From positions 1 through 27,020 of the IMG/VR virus record IMGVR_UViG_3300034524_000178: DNA of 27,020 nt; one strand, written 5' to 3'. The notes beneath the pieces are model-generated. The model did not search any database, was not told the origin of the DNA, and saw only the letters and a list, made by a program, of their open reading frames with translations. The translations under genes and the position numbers were made by a program. This DNA is from a virus. Below, piece after piece: positions 211 through 22,597 of the stretch (position 1 is the stretch's first letter; each line of letters begins with the position of its first letter).

Positions 211-261
211 ATGAGAGGAGAAAAAAACCTGACTAATGAAGCCAGGTTATTCATCTAATTT
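204..261. terminator. Nested inverted repeats between convergent genes; minus-strand terminator
   Basis: An 11-bp perfect inverted repeat (204-214 with 251-261) encloses an inner 6-bp stem (226-231 with 243-248). Read on the minus strand, the inner stem AACCTG / CAGGTT runs into seven consecutive T (complement of 221-227), as in an intrinsic terminator, and it begins within the stop codon of the minus-strand gene ending at 247. The outer repeat overlaps the stop codon of the plus-strand gene ending at 210. The inner stem is short, so strength is uncertain; the arrangement suits termination between convergent genes. Confidence 0.5.
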
Positions 262-780
262 GTTTAAGTCTAAGAATTTAATTGGCTTTCTTGGTTTTGA
301 AACAGCATTTTTTAAATCATCCAAGTAATCTTCAATAAATTCAGTTTCGCACCCTATTTCTTCTATAATGCCGGAATACTCTAAGACATTCTTGTCAGCA
401 TATCTTGTCAAAATAAGGGCCATAAATTCAGGACAAACTTTCCAAGCGCCGGCTACCTTATTTTCATGAAGCAATACTACAGAAAATACATTTAACTTTT
501 CCTCGACATCATGATAGAAATCACCACGGTAGATAAAAAGTGCTTCATGAAGGGTCAGCGGGGAAAAAACAGCTATAGGGCTTGGTAGTTCCGGATAAAA
601 AACATAACATCTCCAATCAGCGGGATTTTTCAAGTCTTCATCAACAACTTTGGCTAAATAATCGTGTCGGTGCAGCACATTAGTCAAAACATCGGGAAAC
701 TGTTTCTCAAGCGGTAAGAAACGATTAAATTCCTTAATGAGCTTAAGATCTTGTTGGATGTCAAATGGGAAATTTTTCAT
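247..780 (-). CDS. Hypothetical protein, minus-strand gene left of the transposase
   Basis: A 177-residue acidic soluble protein with no signal peptide or membrane segment, and no family I recognise. The sequence is rich in aromatic residues (for example DWRCYVFYPELPSP around residues 55-68), and the C-terminal 30 residues are strongly charged. It is transcribed against the transposase operon, the place and direction where phage Mu carries its repressor c. I see no convincing helix-turn-helix, so a repressor role is not supported. A GGGGG-containing ribosome site lies 11 bases before the ATG (complement of 792-797), back to back with the ribosome site of the divergent small gene. It could be an accessory (moron) gene of the phage. 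Confidence 0.65.
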   Translation of the reverse strand: MKNFPFDIQQDLKLIKEFNRFLPLEKQFPDVLTNVLHRHDYLAKVVDEDLKNPADWRCYVFYPELPSPIAVFSPLTLHEALFIYRGDFYHDVEEKLNVFSVVLLHENKVAGAWKVCPEFMALILTRYADKNVLEYSGIIEEIGCETEFIEDYLDDLKNAVSKPRKPIKFLDLNKLDE

Positions 781-5872: not shown

Positions 5873-6361
5873 ATGGCAAGAGTAAGAATACCTAGTGAAC
5901 CTGTCTTGAAATCTTGGGATGATGTTAATTTAACTCTTAAGGAAATTGCCGAGCTGGAGATTGCTATAGAAAAAATTGAAAATGATCTTAACGAAAAAGT
6001 ATCTGACCTAAAACTGGAAGCGGAAATGGCGGTAAAGCCACTCAAAGAAAGAATGGAAAAATTAGCTGCTGATATGAAAGATTTTGTGGAACTTAACCGG
6101 AGTGATATCAAGGGTAAGACAATGGTTCTTAATTTTGGAAAAACAGGCTTCCGGAAGAGCACAAAAATAATTCTAAAAAATGTTAAGGCAATTTTAGCCG
6201 CATTAAAAGCCCGAAAGATGGATGATTGCATATCTATAAAAGAATCAGTTAACAAGGAAAAATTAGGCGAATATCCTGATGAAATAATAGCAGCTGTAGG
6301 TGCTAGTAAAAAGATTGAAGACACCTTCTGGTACGAAACTGACCGGGAAAAATTATTTTAA
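5873..6361 (+). CDS. Mu Gam-like DNA-end protection protein
   Basis: A 162-residue protein resembling phage Mu Gam, which binds double-stranded DNA ends and shields linear phage DNA from host exonucleases (a Ku-like fold). Residues about 12-75 form the long helical arm (alternating acidic and basic residues), followed by the Gam-type core: KGKTMVLNFGKTGFRKST, ILKNVKAILAALKARKMDDC, then KLGEYPDEI. Length is close to Mu Gam (174). GGAGG lies 8 bases before the ATG. In Mu, gam is an early gene; the position here among early genes agrees. Confidence 0.85.
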   Translation: MARVRIPSEPVLKSWDDVNLTLKEIAELEIAIEKIENDLNEKVSDLKLEAEMAVKPLKERMEKLAADMKDFVELNRSDIKGKTMVLNFGKTGFRKSTKIILKNVKAILAALKARKMDDCISIKESVNKEKLGEYPDEIIAAVGASKKIEDTFWYETDREKLF

Positions 6362-6374
6362 GGAGGTTATGAAT

Positions 6375-6518
6375 ATGCTTAAAGCTAATATTCTGGATGC
6401 CAATGGACTATTGGATTTAGTTTTTAATGCTGATGAAAGCAACAAGCACAAAAGCTTGAGAGAAGGTATAACAATTGAACAACTGCAGCGGATGTATGAC
6501 CAGGGATATATTAATTAG
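6375..6518 (+). CDS. Small hypothetical protein between Gam and GemA
   Basis: A 47-residue acidic, helical protein. The ATG at 6375 is chosen because AGGAGG (6361-6366) is 8 bases upstream; the in-frame ATG at 6369 is too close to that site, and a longer frame from 6300 would overlap gam. The C-terminal half (ITIEQLQRMYDQGYI) resembles a short helix-turn segment, but no family is recognised. It ends 8 bases before the gemA start. Confidence 0.55.
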   Translation: MLKANILDANGLLDLVFNADESNKHKSLREGITIEQLQRMYDQGYIN

Positions 6519-6526
6519 GAGGTGTA

Positions 6527-6913
6527 ATGATGCCTCCAATATCAAAACAAAAAATCAAGAAACTTTGGGTGACAGCTAGGAACCTGGGGGTTGATGAAGA
6601 AAGCCTTCGTGATTTAGTTGAAAGCATAACCGGTTCCAGAAGCATCTCAAAGATGTCCGAGAAACATGCCAATAATGTCATAGATGCCTTAAAGGGTAAG
6701 TACCGGCCTGGTTTTGCATCCTCTCGTGAGGTCTGGAAAATATATGAACTGGCAAAAGAACTTGGCTGGGATGAGCCGCAGCGGTTAAGAGGATTTCTCA
6801 AAAAGAATTACAATGTTGAAGATCCTCGTTGGCTCACTTCAGAGATGAGCTGGCGGTGCATTGAAGGATTGAAAGTTCTTCTCAGAAAGCAAAAACAACA
6901 AGCTTCCGGTTGA
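6527..6913 (+). CDS. GemA / Mu gp16-like protein (DUF1018)
   Basis: A 128-residue protein matching the Mu GemA/gp16 pattern: an N-terminal helical segment ISKQKIKKLWVTARNLGVDEE, then LRDLVESITGSRSISKMSEK, and a C-terminal helix-rich part ending in a lysine-rich tail. In Mu, GemA modulates host gene expression and DNA supercoiling early in the lytic cycle. Tandem ATGs at 6527 and 6530 are both possible; AGGAGGTG is immediately upstream and the second ATG gives slightly better spacing. The order gam, small gene, gemA, mor follows the general order of Mu-like early regions. Confidence 0.85.
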   Translation: MMPPISKQKIKKLWVTARNLGVDEESLRDLVESITGSRSISKMSEKHANNVIDALKGKYRPGFASSREVWKIYELAKELGWDEPQRLRGFLKKNYNVEDPRWLTSEMSWRCIEGLKVLLRKQKQQASG

Positions 6914-6953
6914 TAAATAATAAAAATAAGTTTATAGTAAAGGTGGTGATTTT

Positions 6954-7262
6954 TTGAATTGGGAATGGGTAAAGGAAATCCCGGAAGAAAAAATACCCGA
7001 ACCATATAAAACAATAATGGTGGAAATTAGCCCGGAAGCTATGATTAAGTTCGCCCAGTTGTTTCAGGGAATGCCTGTATACTTCCCCAAGCTGGATAAT
7101 CTCCTCCAGGAGATAAGGAACGAAAAGATACAAAAAGAATTCAACGGTTCAAATTACCGGGAATTGGCCCGCAAATATAATCTAACTGAAGTTTGGATCA
7201 GAAACATAGTGGCACAAAAACACAATGAAAATCAAATGAGTATTTTTGATATTGCTCAATAA
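6954..7262 (+). CDS. Mor-family transcription activator
   Basis: A 102-residue protein starting at TTG, preceded by AAGGTGGTGA. The family match is to Mor/C activators of Mu: an N-terminal dimerisation part (EISPEAMIKFAQLFQGMPVYFPK) followed by a C-terminal helix-turn-helix (SNYRELARKYNLTEVWIRNIV). In Mu, Mor turns on the middle promoter and C turns on late promoters. Here a single family member sits just before the late block, so it may act directly on late transcription. It is the last gene before the strong terminator at 7311-7345. It is shorter than Mu Mor (129), but the core is present. Confidence 0.85.
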   Translation: MNWEWVKEIPEEKIPEPYKTIMVEISPEAMIKFAQLFQGMPVYFPKLDNLLQEIRNEKIQKEFNGSNYRELARKYNLTEVWIRNIVAQKHNENQMSIFDIAQ

Positions 7263-7283
7263 AGTAATTTTCTAAAGTACTTT
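7261..7283. promoter_or_regulatory. Paired palindromic motifs after mor, candidate operator
   Basis: AAAGTACTTT (7274-7283) is a perfect 10-bp palindrome, preceded 13 bases earlier by the near-copy AAAGTAATTT (7261-7270). They lie directly after the mor stop. Mor and C proteins bind dyad sites upstream of their promoters, so this could be an operator, but the terminator downstream makes a simple promoter reading awkward. The assignment is inference only. Confidence 0.25.
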
Positions 7284-7310
7284 ATTCGAAATCACATAGG
7301 ATAAATTATA

Positions 7311-7345
7311 AAATCCAAGGGAGAACAAATTCCCTTGGATTTTTT
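7311..7345 (+). terminator. Strong intrinsic terminator closing the early operon
   Basis: A perfect 12-bp stem (AAATCCAAGGGA at 7311-7322 with its complement at 7331-7342), an 8-base loop and a run of six T (7340-7345). It follows the mor gene and precedes the first late gene by 35 bases. It should separate early from late transcription unless late transcription starts inside it or reads through it. Confidence 0.9.
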
Positions 7346-7380
7346 ATTATCCAAAATTTTAAGAAAAGGAGGTTATTTGG

Positions 7381-7659
7381 ATGCTGGAAATTGCTATTAT
7401 TATCACTTTGACTATGGCCAGTGTAGAAGCAATTAAATTTTTCTTTGTAACTGATGAGAATGTAGAAGCCTTTAAAAAAATCTCTTTTATTCCTGTGCTT
7501 GGGATAGCAGTTGTTTTAAATATGCTTAATGCAGGCATATTTGGGGATGCCGGTTTTGCTACTGAAGCCCTTAAATTAGCAGCTAAAGACGGCATTATTT
7601 ACGGCATTGAAGCTGCCGGTGTCTATGGATTAACAAAAGCTGCTCTCGGCAAGTCTTAA
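7381..7659 (+). CDS. Holin-like small membrane protein
   Basis: A 92-residue protein with hydrophobic segments at about 3-23 and 34-53, and a moderately hydrophobic, alanine/glycine-rich C-terminal half. Size, topology and position at the start of the late block fit a phage holin, which forms the lesion in the cytoplasmic membrane at lysis. No specific holin family is recognised from sequence. AAAGGAGG precedes the ATG. No endolysin gene is next to it, which is unusual and leaves the holin call tentative. Confidence 0.5.
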   Translation: MLEIAIIITLTMASVEAIKFFFVTDENVEAFKKISFIPVLGIAVVLNMLNAGIFGDAGFATEALKLAAKDGIIYGIEAAGVYGLTKAALGKS

Positions 7660-7683
7660 TATAGCAAAAGGCGGTTTTAGCAA

Positions 7684-8004
7684 ATGAACTTAAGTTGGTT
7701 ACTACAGACGGCGGTAGTGATGTGCTTGGGAATTATAGGCTACTTCCTAAAGGATTTAAAGAAAAGTTTTGAACAGAAAATCTCAAATATTGAATTAAAA
7801 ATTGATGCCTCTGAAAAACGCATGTCGCAAGAGAATGACAAAATGGAAAAACGCATTGAAGAACTGCAGAAAAATTTTAATGACTATAAAGATTATGTCT
7901 CAGAAAAATATACCCTGAAAGATGATTTTATTCGAGCGGTATCAACCATCGATAAAAAATTAGACAAGATTTATGATGTTGTGGTTAAGAGAGGTGAACC
8001 CTGA
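7684..8004 (+). CDS. Membrane-anchored coiled-coil protein, Mu gp25 position (DUF2730-like)
   Basis: A 106-residue protein with one N-terminal membrane segment (about 4-22), then a long heptad-like coiled coil (about 28-72) and a charged C-terminus. Mu gp25 and its relatives have this layout, and the gene occupies the same relative position, before gp26- and gp27-like genes. A role in lysis (spanin- or XhlA-like) is an alternative. The stop overlaps the next start (TGATGG), indicating tight coupling. Confidence 0.55.
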   Translation: MNLSWLLQTAVVMCLGIIGYFLKDLKKSFEQKISNIELKIDASEKRMSQENDKMEKRIEELQKNFNDYKDYVSEKYTLKDDFIRAVSTIDKKLDKIYDVVVKRGEP

Positions 8005-8306
8005 TGGATCAAGTCCAGGTGCAAAAAAACAAAATGCTTAGAGGTCAGGTATTGAGAACTTTAGCCCTCTTCTACCCATCACCTGTTAGTGTAGCTAATA
8101 TTAAGACATCATTAATGCAAAGAGGAATGTTCTCCGGTAGTGATGTGAGTAAAGTTCTGGAATACCTCAGTGATGATAAAAAAGGTTATATAAAAATCTC
8201 TGAAGGCAAATTGGAAAATTTCGAAGATGATGACATGGTCAAGTTAACCTCTGTGGGAGTGGATTTAATTGAGGGTACCTTGAGCGACCCGGGAGTTGAA
8301 GTCTAG
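8004..8306 (+). CDS. Winged-helix-like protein, Mu gp26 position
   Basis: A 100-residue protein predicted to fold as a small winged helix: helix (LRGQVLRTLALFYP), helix (VSVANIKTSLMQRG), recognition-like helix (GSDVSKVLEYLSDDK), then strands (YIKISEG and VKLTSVGVDLIEG). The gene order gp25-like, this gene, DUF3486 matches Mu-like phages, in which the gp26-type protein is of unknown function. It could bind DNA near the packaging machinery. It overlaps both neighbours by one base. Confidence 0.6.
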   Translation: MDQVQVQKNKMLRGQVLRTLALFYPSPVSVANIKTSLMQRGMFSGSDVSKVLEYLSDDKKGYIKISEGKLENFEDDDMVKLTSVGVDLIEGTLSDPGVEV

Positions 8307-8869
8307 TGAATGGAAAGCGCAAGGTCACCCGGATTAAAAGTAAAATTGATGAGCTTCCGGAAGAACTGCGTGATCAGGTTAATAACATGATCATCGATGT
8401 TAACTATACCTATACAGAAATAAGTAATTTCCTTGCCCAAAAAGGATATGACGTATCCCGTTCCAGCATTGGCCGGTATGCCCTTCGGAAAAATGCCGTT
8501 GTACAGCGTTTTCGGGAAGCACAAGAACAAACTAAGATTCTTGTCGATGCGGTGAAAAACAATCCGGAAGGCGACTATACTGAGGCGACCATGCAGATGT
8601 TAATGACCAGGCTAACCGAAAAAATTGCAGTGGCCGAGGAAGAGTTTGAGAATTTGGACATGGGTGAAGCCGGACGGCTTATAGTAGCCCTAAGCAGGAC
8701 AAAAGCATATAAAGACAGGGTCCGCCAGGAAATGCGTAAAAAAGTTGACCTGGCTTTTGAGAAAATGGAGAGCGAAATATTAAAAGTTATCAAAGGAGCT
8801 CCCGAATTAGCGGCGGATTTAAGGGCTGTACTTGAAAAGGCAAAAGCTAGGATGATTGAAGATGATTAA
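8306..8869 (+). CDS. DUF3486 protein (Mu gp27-like), candidate small terminase
   Basis: A 187-residue protein starting at GTG, with GGGAG 11 bases upstream; the start overlaps the previous stop by one base. The N-terminal part holds a basic segment and a helix-turn-helix-like region (LPEELRDQVNNMI, then YTEISNFLAQKGYDVSRSSIGRY at about 17-54), typical of DUF3486. A long helical C-terminal part follows (about 95-180). In Mu-like phages this gene precedes the large terminase and is thought to be the DNA-recognition (small) subunit. Confidence 0.85.
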   Translation: MNGKRKVTRIKSKIDELPEELRDQVNNMIIDVNYTYTEISNFLAQKGYDVSRSSIGRYALRKNAVVQRFREAQEQTKILVDAVKNNPEGDYTEATMQMLMTRLTEKIAVAEEEFENLDMGEAGRLIVALSRTKAYKDRVRQEMRKKVDLAFEKMESEILKVIKGAPELAADLRAVLEKAKARMIEDD

Positions 8870-19529: not shown

Positions 19530-19886
19530 ATGAATGCAAATGAAAATACAAAAACAACAGAGTTAACAAAAGAGCAAATTGAGCAGTGGAAAGCCCAATA
19601 TGGCGAAGTCTATAAGATTCAGACCGATACAGATAACCCTAATGAAAAGCCTCTGGTATTTTACTTCCAGAAGCCTGCCAGAACCCACTTTTCCCGGTTT
19701 ATTAAAGACAGCATGAAGGACGCCTACAAGGCTATGCACACAATGATTAACGACTTAGCCCTTCATCCTTCCAAGGAAAAGCTGGCGCAAATATTCCAGG
19801 AGAAACCAGGTCTGGTTGTAGCCGTGGGTAATGAATTAAATAAGATTATCGGGGTATCTGAAGATTTTTTAACGTCGAAGGTATAG
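19530..19886 (+). CDS. Tail assembly chaperone, short (unshifted) form
   Basis: A 118-residue acidic, helical protein between the tube and tape measure genes, the position of the tail assembly chaperone (Mu gp41). A soluble N-terminal half (EQIEQWKAQYGEVYKI, then FYFQKPARTHFSRFI) precedes a helical region. Its last codons contain the slippery heptamer T TTT TTA, after which the unshifted frame ends in four more codons (TSKV). It should coat the tape measure protein during tail assembly. GGGAGG precedes the ATG. Confidence 0.85.
   Translation: MNANENTKTTELTKEQIEQWKAQYGEVYKIQTDTDNPNEKPLVFYFQKPARTHFSRFIKDSMKDAYKAMHTMINDLALHPSKEKLAQIFQEKPGLVVAVGNELNKIIGVSEDFLTSKV
19865..19871 (+). promoter_or_regulatory. 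Programmed -1 frameshift site (T_TTT_TTA)
   Basis: The heptamer lies in the zero frame as gaT TTT TTA, the canonical X_XXY_YYZ form. The -1 frame is closed by TGA at 19859-19861, four bases before the heptamer, and is open from there to 20110. GGGGT at 19851-19855, 9 bases upstream, may act as a stimulatory Shine-Dalgarno-like element. I see no strong downstream stem, so efficiency is unknown. Confidence 0.85.
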
Positions 19887-20110
19887 GCGAGGAGATACAA
19901 AAACGTCTGGAGGTATTGGAAAACTCCTTTTACCTTCAGACGGAATTTCTCATAGAACGGTATTTTGGGTTAAGTGTGGAAGAGATTGACAGATTGGAGC
20001 AGGAAACATTCTTGGATTTAGCAGCTAAGGCCATATTCCTAGAAAAGAAAAAGGCTGAAATAATTTCAGCCGGGATTATTGAAGCTATTAATAGGATATT
20101 CGTAAGATGA
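19871..20110 (+). CDS. Tail assembly chaperone, -1 frame extension (T domain)
   Basis: This is the -1 frame part of the long chaperone. Slippage at 19865-19871 joins 114 residues of the first frame to 79 residues here, giving a 193-residue fusion. No ATG with a ribosome site exists in this frame; the first plausible start, TTG at 19916, has a GGAGG only a few bases upstream. The extension is acidic and helical (EEIQKRLEVLE, ERYFGLSVEEIDRLEQETF, AAKAIFLEKKKAEIIS). In lambda-like systems this domain binds the tail tube protein. Its 3' part also encodes, on the opposite strand, the terminator of the adjacent minus-strand gene. Confidence 0.85.
   Translation, partial: NVEGIGEEIQKRLEVLENSFYLQTEFLIERYFGLSVEEIDRLEQETFLDLAAKAIFLEKKKAEIISAGIIEAINRIFVR
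20041..20071 (-). terminator. Minus-strand intrinsic terminator inside chaperone gene
   Basis: Read on the minus strand, an 8-bp stem GGCTGAAA / TTTCAGCC (20053-20060 and 20064-20071) with a 3-base loop is followed by TTTTTCTTTTCT (complement of 20041-20052). It lies about 42 bases beyond the stop of the minus-strand gene at 20113 and within the coding sequence of the plus-strand chaperone. The plus strand has no T run after the stem, so it should act only on the minus-strand transcript. Confidence 0.75.
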
Positions 20111-20112
20111 TT

Positions 20113-20409
20113 TTATTTCCAGCCTTTCTTTTCTAGCCAAGTATTAAGCCGAGCTTCAAAAGCATCGGCGTCCTTATTTCCTAACTCAATACCTTCTTTA
20201 GCACCTTCTTTTAAACTTTGCTTAAAACCAGATTTAAGCTCTGTATAACATTCTTTTAATAATGAAGCAGTACCTATAATAATTCTACCAATATCTCTAA
20301 ATATCTCTGCAATAATAAAACGACTCTTCCAAGTAGCATATATTAAGCCTAGACAAGCACCTATACCAAAGAAAAAAAGAAATATACCAAATGCACCAAG
20401 AAATAACAT
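20113..20409 (-). CDS. Small membrane protein of unknown function, minus-strand moron
   Basis: A 98-residue protein with one strongly hydrophobic N-terminal segment (about residues 2-25, rich in Phe, Leu and Gly) followed by a cytoplasm-like amphipathic, charged part (SLLKECYTELKSGFKQSL) and a C-terminus ending EKKGWK. It lies opposite the late operon, between the tail chaperone and tape measure genes, with its stop 2 bases from the chaperone stop. AGGAGGTGG lies upstream of its ATG, with AGGAGG (complement of 20419-20424) 9 bases away. With its own promoter and terminator it is an autonomous unit, the hallmark of a moron expressed from the prophage. No family is recognised; superinfection exclusion is one possibility, but nothing in the sequence shows it. 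Confidence 0.8.
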   Translation of the reverse strand: MLFLGAFGIFLFFFGIGACLGLIYATWKSRFIIAEIFRDIGRIIIGTASLLKECYTELKSGFKQSLKEGAKEGIELGNKDADAFEARLNTWLEKKGWK

Positions 20410-20430
20410 AATTATCCACCTCCTAGCTTT

Positions 20431-20459
20431 AGGATATAAGAAAAAACGGGGGCGGTCAA
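20431..20459 (-). promoter_or_regulatory. Sigma70-like promoter of the minus-strand moron
   Basis: On the minus strand, TTGACC (complement of 20454-20459) and TATCCT (complement of 20431-20436) stand 17 bases apart; TATATC is an alternative -10 at 15 bases. The -35 matches the consensus at five of six positions and the -10 at four. The ribosome site of the moron lies just downstream. The promoter overlaps the ribosome-binding region of the tape measure gene on the other strand, so active late transcription could interfere with it. Confidence 0.6.
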
Positions 20460-20461
20460 CA

Positions 20462-22597
20462 GTGGATTCTATTTATAAACTAGGTATTTTGTTTTCCGTG
20501 ATAGACCAGGTGAGTGGTCCAACACGGAAAATGATGAATGAAGTAGTAAACTTTGAAAAAAATATTCAAAGAGCCAAAGGAGCAATTGACTTCGGCCAGA
20601 GAATGGCTGTCTCCGGTGCTCTTGTTCAAGGTGCAGCTCAACAAATGCGTGGCGTTTTAGGAACGATTGTGGAGCCGGTTGCTACTGTTAACGACAGTCT
20701 TGCCGCCCTTTCAACTGTGACCACTTCAACCATGGGCGATATGAATAAATCTATGGAGTTTACAAAGAAGGCTGCAATTGCATGGGAGAAAAATCATAGA
20801 GAACTGGCAGAGCAATTTATTAATACTAGTTATATGATGGCCAGTGCAGGACTAAATGATGTACAGTCAGTTTATGGTACTGAAACTGCTTTGCGGGTGG
20901 CAACAGCTACTTTTGGGGACTATGCGGAAGCCGCTAACTTAATTGCAACCTCGTATAACAACATGGGTAATAAGAGTGCCAATGTTCAGCGGGAAATGGC
21001 AAGACTTGGTGATATCATAACTAAAACCCAGCAGACTTTCCAGTTTGCCAATCTCAATCAGCTAAGTGAAGGTTTGAAATATGCTATGCCTGCAGCTATA
21101 CAGGCCAGGATGGAGTTTGCCGAAGTGAACACTGTAATCGGCCAGTTAAATAATGCCGGACTTCAAGGCTCAATGGCCGGTACAGCTTTTGCAGCTTCCA
21201 TGCGACAGATGAACAAAGCTTCGAAAGAACTAGGCTTCACCATAGCCAAAAACCGGGATGGCAGCATCAGTTTTATTGGTACTATGGAAAATATCAGGAA
21301 TAAATACGGTGATTTAAGCAGAGCTTCCCCGGCAGTTCAAATGGCATTTCAAAAAGCTTTTGGTGAGGAAGGTTTGCGGGCAATAGTTCTTCTTAACCAG
21401 CAAACGGATGTAATGAAAGAAAATCTGGATAAGGTCAGAAATTCTGCCGGTGCTGCAGCTCTGGCTCAAGCGCAAATTGAAGGAACTGAGACAAATGATT
21501 ATCAGATCACAATGAATAATCTTAGAAGCTTAAGAAGGGAAGTCGGAGAACAACTGCTTCCAACAATAAAAGAGTTAATTCCGGAGCTAAGAAATCTAAT
21601 AAAATCTTTTTCGGGTTTTGTTAATGCCCATCCTCAGTTGATTAAGACATTAGTACTTATGTTTGCTGTAGGTACAGCGGTATTAAGTATATTGGCGCCA
21701 ATTCTAACAGTAGTGGCAAGTCTTATGATGATGTCAGGTTATGGGATGATGGCTTACTCTAAACTTGGGCAAGGTTTTAAGTGGCTATATAATACACCAA
21801 TCAAAAAGCATTTATGGCCAGGAATAAAAAATCTAAGAATGCTGTTCCTTAGATTTGGGAGTACTTCTTTAAAAGTAGTTAGTGGATTAGGTAGCAGATT
21901 ATTAATACTCGCAGTAAGAATAATCCCGATGGTTGTCTCAGGTGTATGGGCATTTACAACAGCTCTACTAGCTAATCCCATAACCTGGGTGGTAGTTGGA
22001 GTAGTTGCCTTAAGTGCGGCCCTATATGCTCTGTATAAAAATTGGGATACGGTAAAACAGGTTGCAGGCAATGTGCTGCAGTATATGTCGGACAAAGTGA
22101 CAGCCACTCTCGGTTGGTTAAGCAAAAAAGTGACTGAATTTAGGCAATCAGGTGCAGCTCTTTTAGGTGCTTTTACCGACGGCATTAAATCGGTAATCGG
22201 TAAACCGGTTGAAGTTATCCAGACGGGCCTTGCCAAGATTCGCAATCTTCTGCCCTTCTCCGATGCTAAAGAAGGTCCATTATCTACCCTTACCAGAAGC
22301 GGTATGGCAATGATAGATACTTTTGGCGCTGGTGTACAAAAAACACTTCCGCAGCTCCATGACATGATGACTGCCGGATTCGGTGATTTGCCGGTGGTAG
22401 CAGCGGGAGGATATGGTCAAGTAAGAGTGCCAGTGAGCGATTTCTTTTCACCCAGGGAAAGGTCAACTAAAGCTAATGCAGACAGACCGGTATTCAACAT
22501 ATACGGGGATATCATAATTAAAGTGGAGAAGCTGGATAATGAGGAAAAAGTATTCAGCATCTTCCGAAACTTAGCCAAGGAGGTCGCTGACGAATGA
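20462..22597 (+). CDS. Tail tape measure protein (TP901-like core)
   Basis: A 711-residue protein that sets tail length. It starts at GTG with GGGGGCGGT upstream. The N-terminal half shows the TP901-type core: helical and coiled (about 20-120), QQTFQFANLNQLSEGLKYAM (191-210), GTAFAASMRQMNKASKELG (240-258), then FQKAFGEEGLRAIVLLNQQ (296-314). Hydrophobic segments lie at about 394-430 and 478-525, consistent with the membrane-penetrating part of tape measure proteins. A later segment (LGAFTDGIKSVIGKPVEVI) and the C-terminal KVEKLDNEEKVFSIFRNLAKEV are typical of the family. The next gene overlaps its stop by four bases. It is separated from its chaperone by the minus-strand moron, an unusual interruption. 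Confidence 0.92.
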   Translation: MDSIYKLGILFSVIDQVSGPTRKMMNEVVNFEKNIQRAKGAIDFGQRMAVSGALVQGAAQQMRGVLGTIVEPVATVNDSLAALSTVTTSTMGDMNKSMEFTKKAAIAWEKNHRELAEQFINTSYMMASAGLNDVQSVYGTETALRVATATFGDYAEAANLIATSYNNMGNKSANVQREMARLGDIITKTQQTFQFANLNQLSEGLKYAMPAAIQARMEFAEVNTVIGQLNNAGLQGSMAGTAFAASMRQMNKASKELGFTIAKNRDGSISFIGTMENIRNKYGDLSRASPAVQMAFQKAFGEEGLRAIVLLNQQTDVMKENLDKVRNSAGAAALAQAQIEGTETNDYQITMNNLRSLRREVGEQLLPTIKELIPELRNLIKSFSGFVNAHPQLIKTLVLMFAVGTAVLSILAPILTVVASLMMMSGYGMMAYSKLGQGFKWLYNTPIKKHLWPGIKNLRMLFLRFGSTSLKVVSGLGSRLLILAVRIIPMVVSGVWAFTTALLANPITWVVVGVVALSAALYALYKNWDTVKQVAGNVLQYMSDKVTATLGWLSKKVTEFRQSGAALLGAFTDGIKSVIGKPVEVIQTGLAKIRNLLPFSDAKEGPLSTLTRSGMAMIDTFGAGVQKTLPQLHDMMTAGFGDLPVVAAGGYGQVRVPVSDFFSPRERSTKANADRPVFNIYGDIIIKVEKLDNEEKVFSIFRNLAKEVADE

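What the first reader, a model, noticed from the sequence alone, without database searches (positions are those of the whole stretch)
20041..20459. Self-contained minus-strand moron embedded in the tail operon
A 98-aa membrane protein gene (20113-20409) lies against the late operon between the tail chaperone and the tape measure. It has a sigma70-like promoter (TTGACC-17-TATCCT), a strong AGGAGG ribosome site and an intrinsic terminator. The terminator is written inside the chaperone coding sequence, so that stretch is under two constraints. The promoter overlaps the tape measure ribosome-binding region, which invites transcription interference and could make expression specific to the prophage state. 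I recognise no family for the protein.
Basis: partly seen in the sequence, partly recalled or inferred. Interest (0 to 1): 0.72.

Follow-up and report, generated by a model that had tools for sequence, protein, structure and literature searches.

The report
Prophage membrane gene beside tape measure
In a large group of Mu-like phages, the junction just before the tail-length (tape measure) gene usually holds a small, backwards-facing membrane-protein gene with its own on and off signals, probably a way for a resident phage to shut out rival phages; the arrangement was not annotated or described in anything searched here.

Summary
At 20113-20409 on the minus strand there is a real gene with a sigma70-like promoter, an AGGAGG site and an intrinsic terminator. 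The promoter and terminator counts are near chance in this window alone, but comparison settles the matter. 49 of 63 related phage loci carry a small minus-strand gene for an N-terminal membrane helix at exactly this junction, and 14 lack it. Close pairs have dN/dS of 0.06-0.32. The promoter (z about 11; control -0.4) and the terminator (33 of 41) recur. Close relatives show a clean empty site, and the gene is AT-rich in 39 of 40. So it is a moron cassette, usually retained but repeatedly lost or gained, and made of several unrelated protein families (types A, B and others). No library has a family for it. The chaperone-overlapping terminator is a local quirk: relatives put it in the gene's own last codons. 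Best reading: a prophage-expressed, tape-measure-linked superinfection-exclusion protein, analogous to (not homologous with) HK97 gp15, which sits in the same slot on the other strand. Function and expression are inferred, not shown.

The parts
20113..20409 (-). 98-aa protein of type A: N-terminal transmembrane helix (about residues 2-27), then a long charged helix
   Evidence: ORF; family alignments A1 and A4; AlphaFold model is one helix, residues 2-94, pLDDT 79, pTM 0.27; dN/dS below 0.3 in close type A pairs of relatives
20419..20424 (-). AGGAGG ribosome-binding site, 9 nt before the ATG
   Evidence: sequence; comparable sites in relatives
20431..20459 (-). sigma70/sigmaA-like promoter TTGACC-17-TATCCT; the -35 box lies between the tape measure Shine-Dalgarno and start codon
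   Evidence: conserved as TTGACA-17/18-TANNNT in most type A relatives, z=10.9
20053..20071 (-). intrinsic terminator hairpin, T-rich tail down to about 20043; lies inside the chaperone GT extension
   Evidence: dG -9.2 kcal/mol; 5% of shuffles as good
19530..19886 (+). tail assembly chaperone G (DUF6848), left flank of the cassette
   Evidence: PF20941 E=3.8e-19; phrog_20303
19865..19871 (+). slippery heptamer T TTT TTA for the -1 frameshift G to GT
   Evidence: sequence; TTTTTTA or TTTTTTC at the same codons in many type A relatives
19872..20110 (+). GT extension of the chaperone (-1 frame), ends 2 nt from the stop of the small gene
20462..22597 (+). tape measure protein, right flank of the cassette
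   Evidence: PF10145 E=2e-24; phrog_28 E=8.5e-59

Best explanation
It is a moron: a self-contained promoter-gene-terminator cassette inserted between the chaperone GT stop codon and the tape measure ribosome site of a Mu-like contractile-tailed phage. A housekeeping-type promoter would express it in the lysogen. The protein is a short single-pass inner-membrane protein, probably N-out/C-in, with a helical, mostly cytoplasmic tail. Most likely it is a superinfection-exclusion protein that meets the incoming tape measure protein at the membrane and stops genome entry of related phages. The antisense orientation would let late transcription override it once the prophage is induced. Shown by computation: cassette anatomy, family, selection on the protein, patchy presence, empty sites, recurrence of unrelated membrane proteins in the slot. 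Inferred: expression in the lysogen, topology, exclusion, tape measure as the partner, silencing by late transcription.
For: 49 of 63 loci hold a small minus-strand gene with a hydrophobic N-terminal segment at this junction, 14 are empty, and no small plus-strand gene was seen there. Empty-site alignment of L170, L175, L178, L181 against L163, L166, L174. dN/dS 0.06-0.32. Promoter z=10.9 and 11.0, control -0.4. Terminators in 33 of 41. AT-rich in 39 of 40. HK97 gp15, a known exclusion protein reported to block DNA injection and escaped by tail tube/tape measure exchange (PMC10883804), sits in the same slot. Tab (PMC10884400) is a minus-strand late-operon gene with its own promoter that targets the tape measure. 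For type B, divergence tracks the tape measure after conditioning on four other late genes (partial r 0.59, p 0.001). A sister clade carries other cargo one junction away (tail tube/chaperone), one a RelA/SpoT protein matching a candidate defence model.
Against: No expression or infection data exist. There is no sequence homology to any known exclusion protein. Co-divergence with the tape measure is inconclusive for the window's own type A (partial r 0.19, p 0.054; a downstream gene scores higher, 0.31, p 0.005). The tape measure is also the longest and an adjacent gene, which by itself improves such a correlation. HK97 gp15 and Ltp act on non-contractile tails, whereas this phage has a sheath (DUF2586).
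Confidence: 0.5

Rival explanations
1. Prophage-expressed membrane protein with another lysogenic-conversion role (envelope physiology, receptor masking, host fitness), not tape measure linked.
For: Same anatomy and selection. Short membrane proteins have many roles. Type A co-divergence with the tape measure is not specific.
Against: It does not explain why unrelated membrane proteins keep using the slot beside the tape measure or the type B co-divergence with it.
Confidence: 0.22
2. Late-acting tail assembly blocker like Tab: it binds newly made tape measure protein of an invader and stops tail assembly.
For: Tab is a small minus-strand late-operon gene with its own promoter that targets the tape measure (PMC10884400).
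Against: The present protein is membrane-anchored, is not in the terminase slot, and its cassette holds no second gene that could be an anti-Tab.
Confidence: 0.12
3. Lytic-cycle accessory: a membrane protein that helps tape measure or tail assembly, or lysis timing.
For: It sits in the tail operon next to the tape measure and is retained in most relatives.
Against: It is antisense to the late operon with a housekeeping-type promoter, is repeatedly absent in close relatives, and is exchanged for unrelated proteins.
Confidence: 0.08
4. The minus-strand RNA, not the protein, is the agent: antisense control or antisense exclusion, as with STnc6030 of phage BTP1 (PMC7067206).
For: In the window the transcript would overlap the last ~60 nt of GT. 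Antisense exclusion exists in another phage.
Against: The protein is under purifying selection while synonymous sites are free. In the aligned relatives the terminator lies at the gene's end, next to the GT stop, leaving little overlap with late genes. Transcription runs away from the tape measure.
Confidence: 0.05
5. A chance ORF with chance promoter- and terminator-like matches.
For: In the window alone the counts equal the shuffles, and no database family matches.
Against: Family in 49 of 63 relatives, dN/dS below 0.33, promoter and terminator conservation.
Confidence: 0.01

Closest known systems
HK97 gp15 (Escherichia phage HK97 moron, superinfection exclusion)
   Same: Same slot, between the frameshifted chaperone and the tape measure; short protein predicted in the inner membrane; followed by its own terminator. 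[quoted passage not shown]
   Different: HK97 gp15 is on the plus strand and matches PF13974 (YebO) and phrog_5031; hhalign with type A gives probability 0.6%. HK97 has a non-contractile tail.
Tab (Pseudomonas phage JBD26, tail assembly blocker)
   Same: Small minus-strand gene inside the late operon with its own promoter, expressed in the lysogen, tape measure as target (PMC10884400).
   Different: Tab lies between the terminase genes, comes with an anti-Tab gene, and acts on tail assembly rather than at the membrane.
Ltp (Streptococcus phage TP-J34 exclusion lipoprotein)
   Same: Exclusion at the membrane of a Gram-positive host; blocks DNA injection; tape measure changes overcome it (PMC3952083; PMC10883804).
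   Different: Ltp is a surface lipoprotein encoded in the lysogeny module; none of 40 type A/B proteins has a lipobox after a basic n-region.
Noncontiguous-operon immunity (Tha/Ith of Staphylococcus phage 80alpha)
   Same: Antisense gene with its own promoter inside a phage operon, separating lysogenic and lytic expression (PMC11087260).
   Different: There the antisense gene is the inhibitor, not the defence gene; a different protein family.

Membership tests
Moron (extra gene with own signals in a prophage) | Inserted between two genes that are adjacent in relatives | tested here: met
   Empty-site alignment; 14 of 63 loci lack it
Moron (extra gene with own signals in a prophage) | Own promoter and terminator | tested here: met
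   Sequence level only: promoters z about 11, terminators 33 of 41
Moron (extra gene with own signals in a prophage) | Base composition unlike neighbours | tested here: met
   GC 32.3% against 42.4% in flanks; lower in 39 of 40 relatives
Moron (extra gene with own signals in a prophage) | Expressed from the repressed prophage | not testable with these tools
   No RNA data held
HK97 gp15 | Slot between frameshifted chaperone and tape measure | tested here: met
   HK97 record; window
HK97 gp15 | Sequence homology (YebO, PF13974 / phrog_5031) | tested here: not met
HK97 gp15 | Co-oriented with the tail genes | tested here: not met
   minus strand in all 49 loci
HK97 gp15 | Blocks DNA injection of related phages | not testable with these tools
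   needs infection assays
Tab | Minus strand in the late operon with its own promoter | tested here: met
Tab | Terminase-gene slot with an adjacent anti-Tab gene | tested here: not met
   slot is chaperone/tape measure and the cassette holds a single gene
Tab | Acts on the tape measure | tested here: inconclusive
   co-divergence specific to the tape measure in type B, not in type A
Ltp-type exclusion lipoprotein | Lipobox signal peptide | tested here: not met
   0 of 40
Known anti-phage defence families (PADLOC-DB 2.0) | Profile match | tested here: not met
   no match, E up to 1

The most novel reading that the evidence does not exclude
The chaperone/tape measure junction is a dedicated exclusion slot in Mu-like phages: unrelated single-pass membrane proteins (at least types A, B and L118/L121-like) have been recruited there independently, always antisense and with a terminator usually written into their last codons, because each must be tuned to the adjacent tape measure protein and switched off by late transcription.
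Probability: 0.35. Interest if true: 0.72.

Novelty: new variant of a known kind. Interest (0 to 1): 0.55.

Why it matters
If true, the gene next to the tape measure predicts which phages a lysogen can exclude, and it gives a set of new small membrane proteins that should act at genome entry of contractile-tailed phages, where no tape-measure-linked exclusion protein was found in the papers read here. It also gives a simple rule for finding such genes that annotation overlooks: a minus-strand membrane ORF with its own promoter and terminator just upstream of the tape measure.

Tried and rejected
Single-sequence searches with the 98-aa protein found nothing in Pfam, PHROGs, viral contigs, genome contigs or annotated phages; its weak Listeria phage hits (E 0.4) were rejected as chance. 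An alignment scan with type A failed because no stretch is conserved enough. Tape measure relatives were mostly too distant to inform; the tail tube protein worked. Homology of types A and B was tested and not supported (hhalign probability 8.9%). PDB sequence matches were chance. A first terminator scan missed odd-length hairpins and was replaced; seven type A genes (L107, L108, L109, L112, L117, L124, L126) still show no terminator near the stop. A first promoter scan used wrong start codons for some loci and was replaced. Six loci with a different layout (L134, L143, L145, L147, L157, L161) were left out of the 63; L134 has a long chaperone/tape measure gap with no such gene. Fold searches were not run because the type A model is a single helix. 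Host taxonomy of the window was not established: it is an unnamed virus record. Mushuvirus mushu, MMP17, Riverbug and Peternella lack the gene.

Full report
What was checked. The window is a 27,020-base virus record of a Mu-like contractile-tailed phage: Mu transposase C-terminal domain, an AAA ATPase next to it, GemA, Mu F-like protein, gpT major head protein, DUF2586 sheath, tail tube, DUF6848 chaperone and tape measure. The ORF at 20113-20409(-), its AGGAGG site, the promoter TTGACC-17-TATCCT and the hairpin at 20071-20053 with its T tract are all present. In the window alone, promoter- and terminator-like matches are as frequent as in shuffled sequence (7 against 5.3 and 2 against 2.1), so comparison was needed.

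Neighbouring anatomy. The chaperone ORF 19530-19886 carries a slippery T TTT TTA at 19865-19871; a -1 shift there fuses it to a second frame ending at 20110, the G/GT arrangement. The GT stop and the small gene's stop are 2 nt apart, tail to tail. The hairpin lies inside the GT frame. The -35 box lies between the tape measure's Shine-Dalgarno and its GTG at 20462.

Relatives. Single-sequence searches with the protein found nothing. Relatives were therefore fetched with the tail tube protein. All 11 of the closest have a small minus-strand gene with an N-terminal hydrophobic segment at the same junction (two of them share one sequence). In the wider set, 63 loci could be scored: 49 have such a gene and 14 do not. 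The loci without it have a short gap of about 190-280 nt between chaperone and tape measure, which the GT extension largely fills; scored loci with a gap over 380 nt have the gene. It was never on the plus strand. Some of the 63 loci are near copies, so they are not independent; six loci with a different layout were not scored.

Families. Type A, which includes the window, has the consensus FFFFGIG..LGL..A.IRFGIP....EGW (20-36% identity to the window protein). Type B has FALCAGA.ISVLVFVPL.IYVIPY.LWVG...GKH.DKKKE..FR..RNAT.LYKSWITRKEPTF. L118/L121, L127, L130 and L136 carry further sequences. A and B are not demonstrably homologous (hhalign probability 8.9%). None has a convincing match in Pfam, PHROGs, NCBIfam or PADLOC, nor in the annotated phage collection. 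AlphaFold gives one helix over residues 2-94 for the window protein (pLDDT 79, pTM 0.27) and helices 2-47 and 58-74 for type B (pLDDT 85, pTM 0.53). Charge after the membrane segment is slightly positive, so C-in is the likelier topology.

It is a protein-coding gene. Close pairs within types A and B give dN/dS of 0.06-0.32, with synonymous sites often saturated. That argues against a chance ORF and against a role carried by the RNA alone.

It is a cassette. In close relatives the site is either filled or empty, with flanks aligned on both sides; the insert runs from just after the GT stop codon to just before the tape measure ribosome site. L170 and L173 share 83% identity over the first 300 residues of the tape measure, yet only L173 has the gene. 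Presence and absence need at least 7-8 changes on the tail tube tree, as expected for a moron lost or gained repeatedly. The gene is poorer in GC than its flanks in 39 of 40 cases (32% against 42% here).

Signals. With corrected start codons, promoter scores upstream of type A exceed shuffles by z=10.9 (mostly TTGACA-17/18-TANNNT, L112 a perfect TTGACA-17-TATAAT) and upstream of type B by z=11.0 (mostly extended -10, TGNTANNNT); the same stretch in loci lacking the gene gives z=-0.4. A hairpin plus T tract follows in 33 of 41 unique genes, mostly 6-16 nt after the stop codon, with mean energy -11.7 against -2.3 kcal/mol in shuffles. The stem usually includes the gene's last codons; the conserved ending of type B (EPTF-stop) is the 5' arm of its terminator. 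Seven type A genes show no terminator near the stop. In 14 of 41 loci the same stretch also scores as a terminator on the plus strand.

Mechanism. Antisense orientation, housekeeping-type promoter and short self-contained transcript fit expression in the lysogen and override by late transcription on induction (inference; antisense units switching between lysogenic and lytic expression are known in phage 80alpha, PMC11087260). The neighbour suggests the target. In HK97 the same slot holds gp15, an exclusion protein predicted to be in the inner membrane and reported to block DNA injection; [quoted passage not shown] PMC10883804). Tab of JBD26, another minus-strand late-operon gene with its own promoter, targets the tape measure (PMC10884400). 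The membrane nuclease SNIPE also meets tape measure proteins during genome entry (PMC13190303). Here, type B proteins diverge in step with the tape measure after conditioning on sheath, tube, chaperone and the gene after the tape measure (partial r 0.59, p 0.001), whereas those four give partial r of -0.16, 0.29, 0.02 and 0.03. For type A the same test is inconclusive (0.19, p 0.054; downstream gene 0.31, p 0.005). The test does not remove phylogeny and favours long genes.

A supporting observation: a sister clade with near-identical tail tubes has different cargo between tail tube and chaperone, one a RelA/SpoT-domain protein matching the candidate defence model PDC-S33. The junctions around the chaperone in these phages may therefore be favoured places for anti-phage cargo.

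Verdict. The gene is real and is a moron; I put that above 0.9. Superinfection exclusion linked to the tape measure is the best explanation, at about 0.5, by analogy of position and partial co-divergence; no experiment was available. It is not a member of the gp15, Tab or Ltp families.

Noticed in passing
L143 4537-5814; L145 6539-7939; L157 6603-8473; L161 6636-8395: Sister phages with near-identical tail tubes carry different, mostly unrelated cargo genes between tail tube and chaperone; that of L143 is a RelA/SpoT-domain protein matching PADLOC candidate PDC-S33. The GT/tape measure slot showed no small membrane gene in these.
   Followed up: partly
L011 7152-7685 (-); L062 5730-6200 (-): Unrelated phages also have a minus-strand membrane-protein gene just upstream of the tape measure; the L062 one is followed by a hairpin with T tract and matches phrog_13160.
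   Followed up: partly
window 19865-19871: -1 frameshift site T TTT TTA joining chaperone G to GT; conserved as TTTTTTA or TTTTTTC in many type A relatives, while type B relatives mostly have AAATTTA/G/C there.
   Followed up: partly
L140, L154, L167, L171 and ten other loci, region around the small gene's stop: In 14 of 41 loci the terminator also scores on the plus strand, which could attenuate late transcription just before the tape measure.
   Followed up: no
L088 9043-9414 (-): The longest type A member (123 aa) seems to repeat its E.W..G tail motif.
   Followed up: no
window 247-780 (-): A 177-aa minus-strand ORF at the left end of the window has no Pfam match.
   Followed up: no
L096 (Mushuvirus mushu) 6101-7003 and 6720-8471: The tape measure of this Mushuvirus mushu record is split over two frames: an unannotated frame from 6101 to 7003 starts like the other tape measures, and only the later frame (6720-8471) is annotated.
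   Followed up: partly
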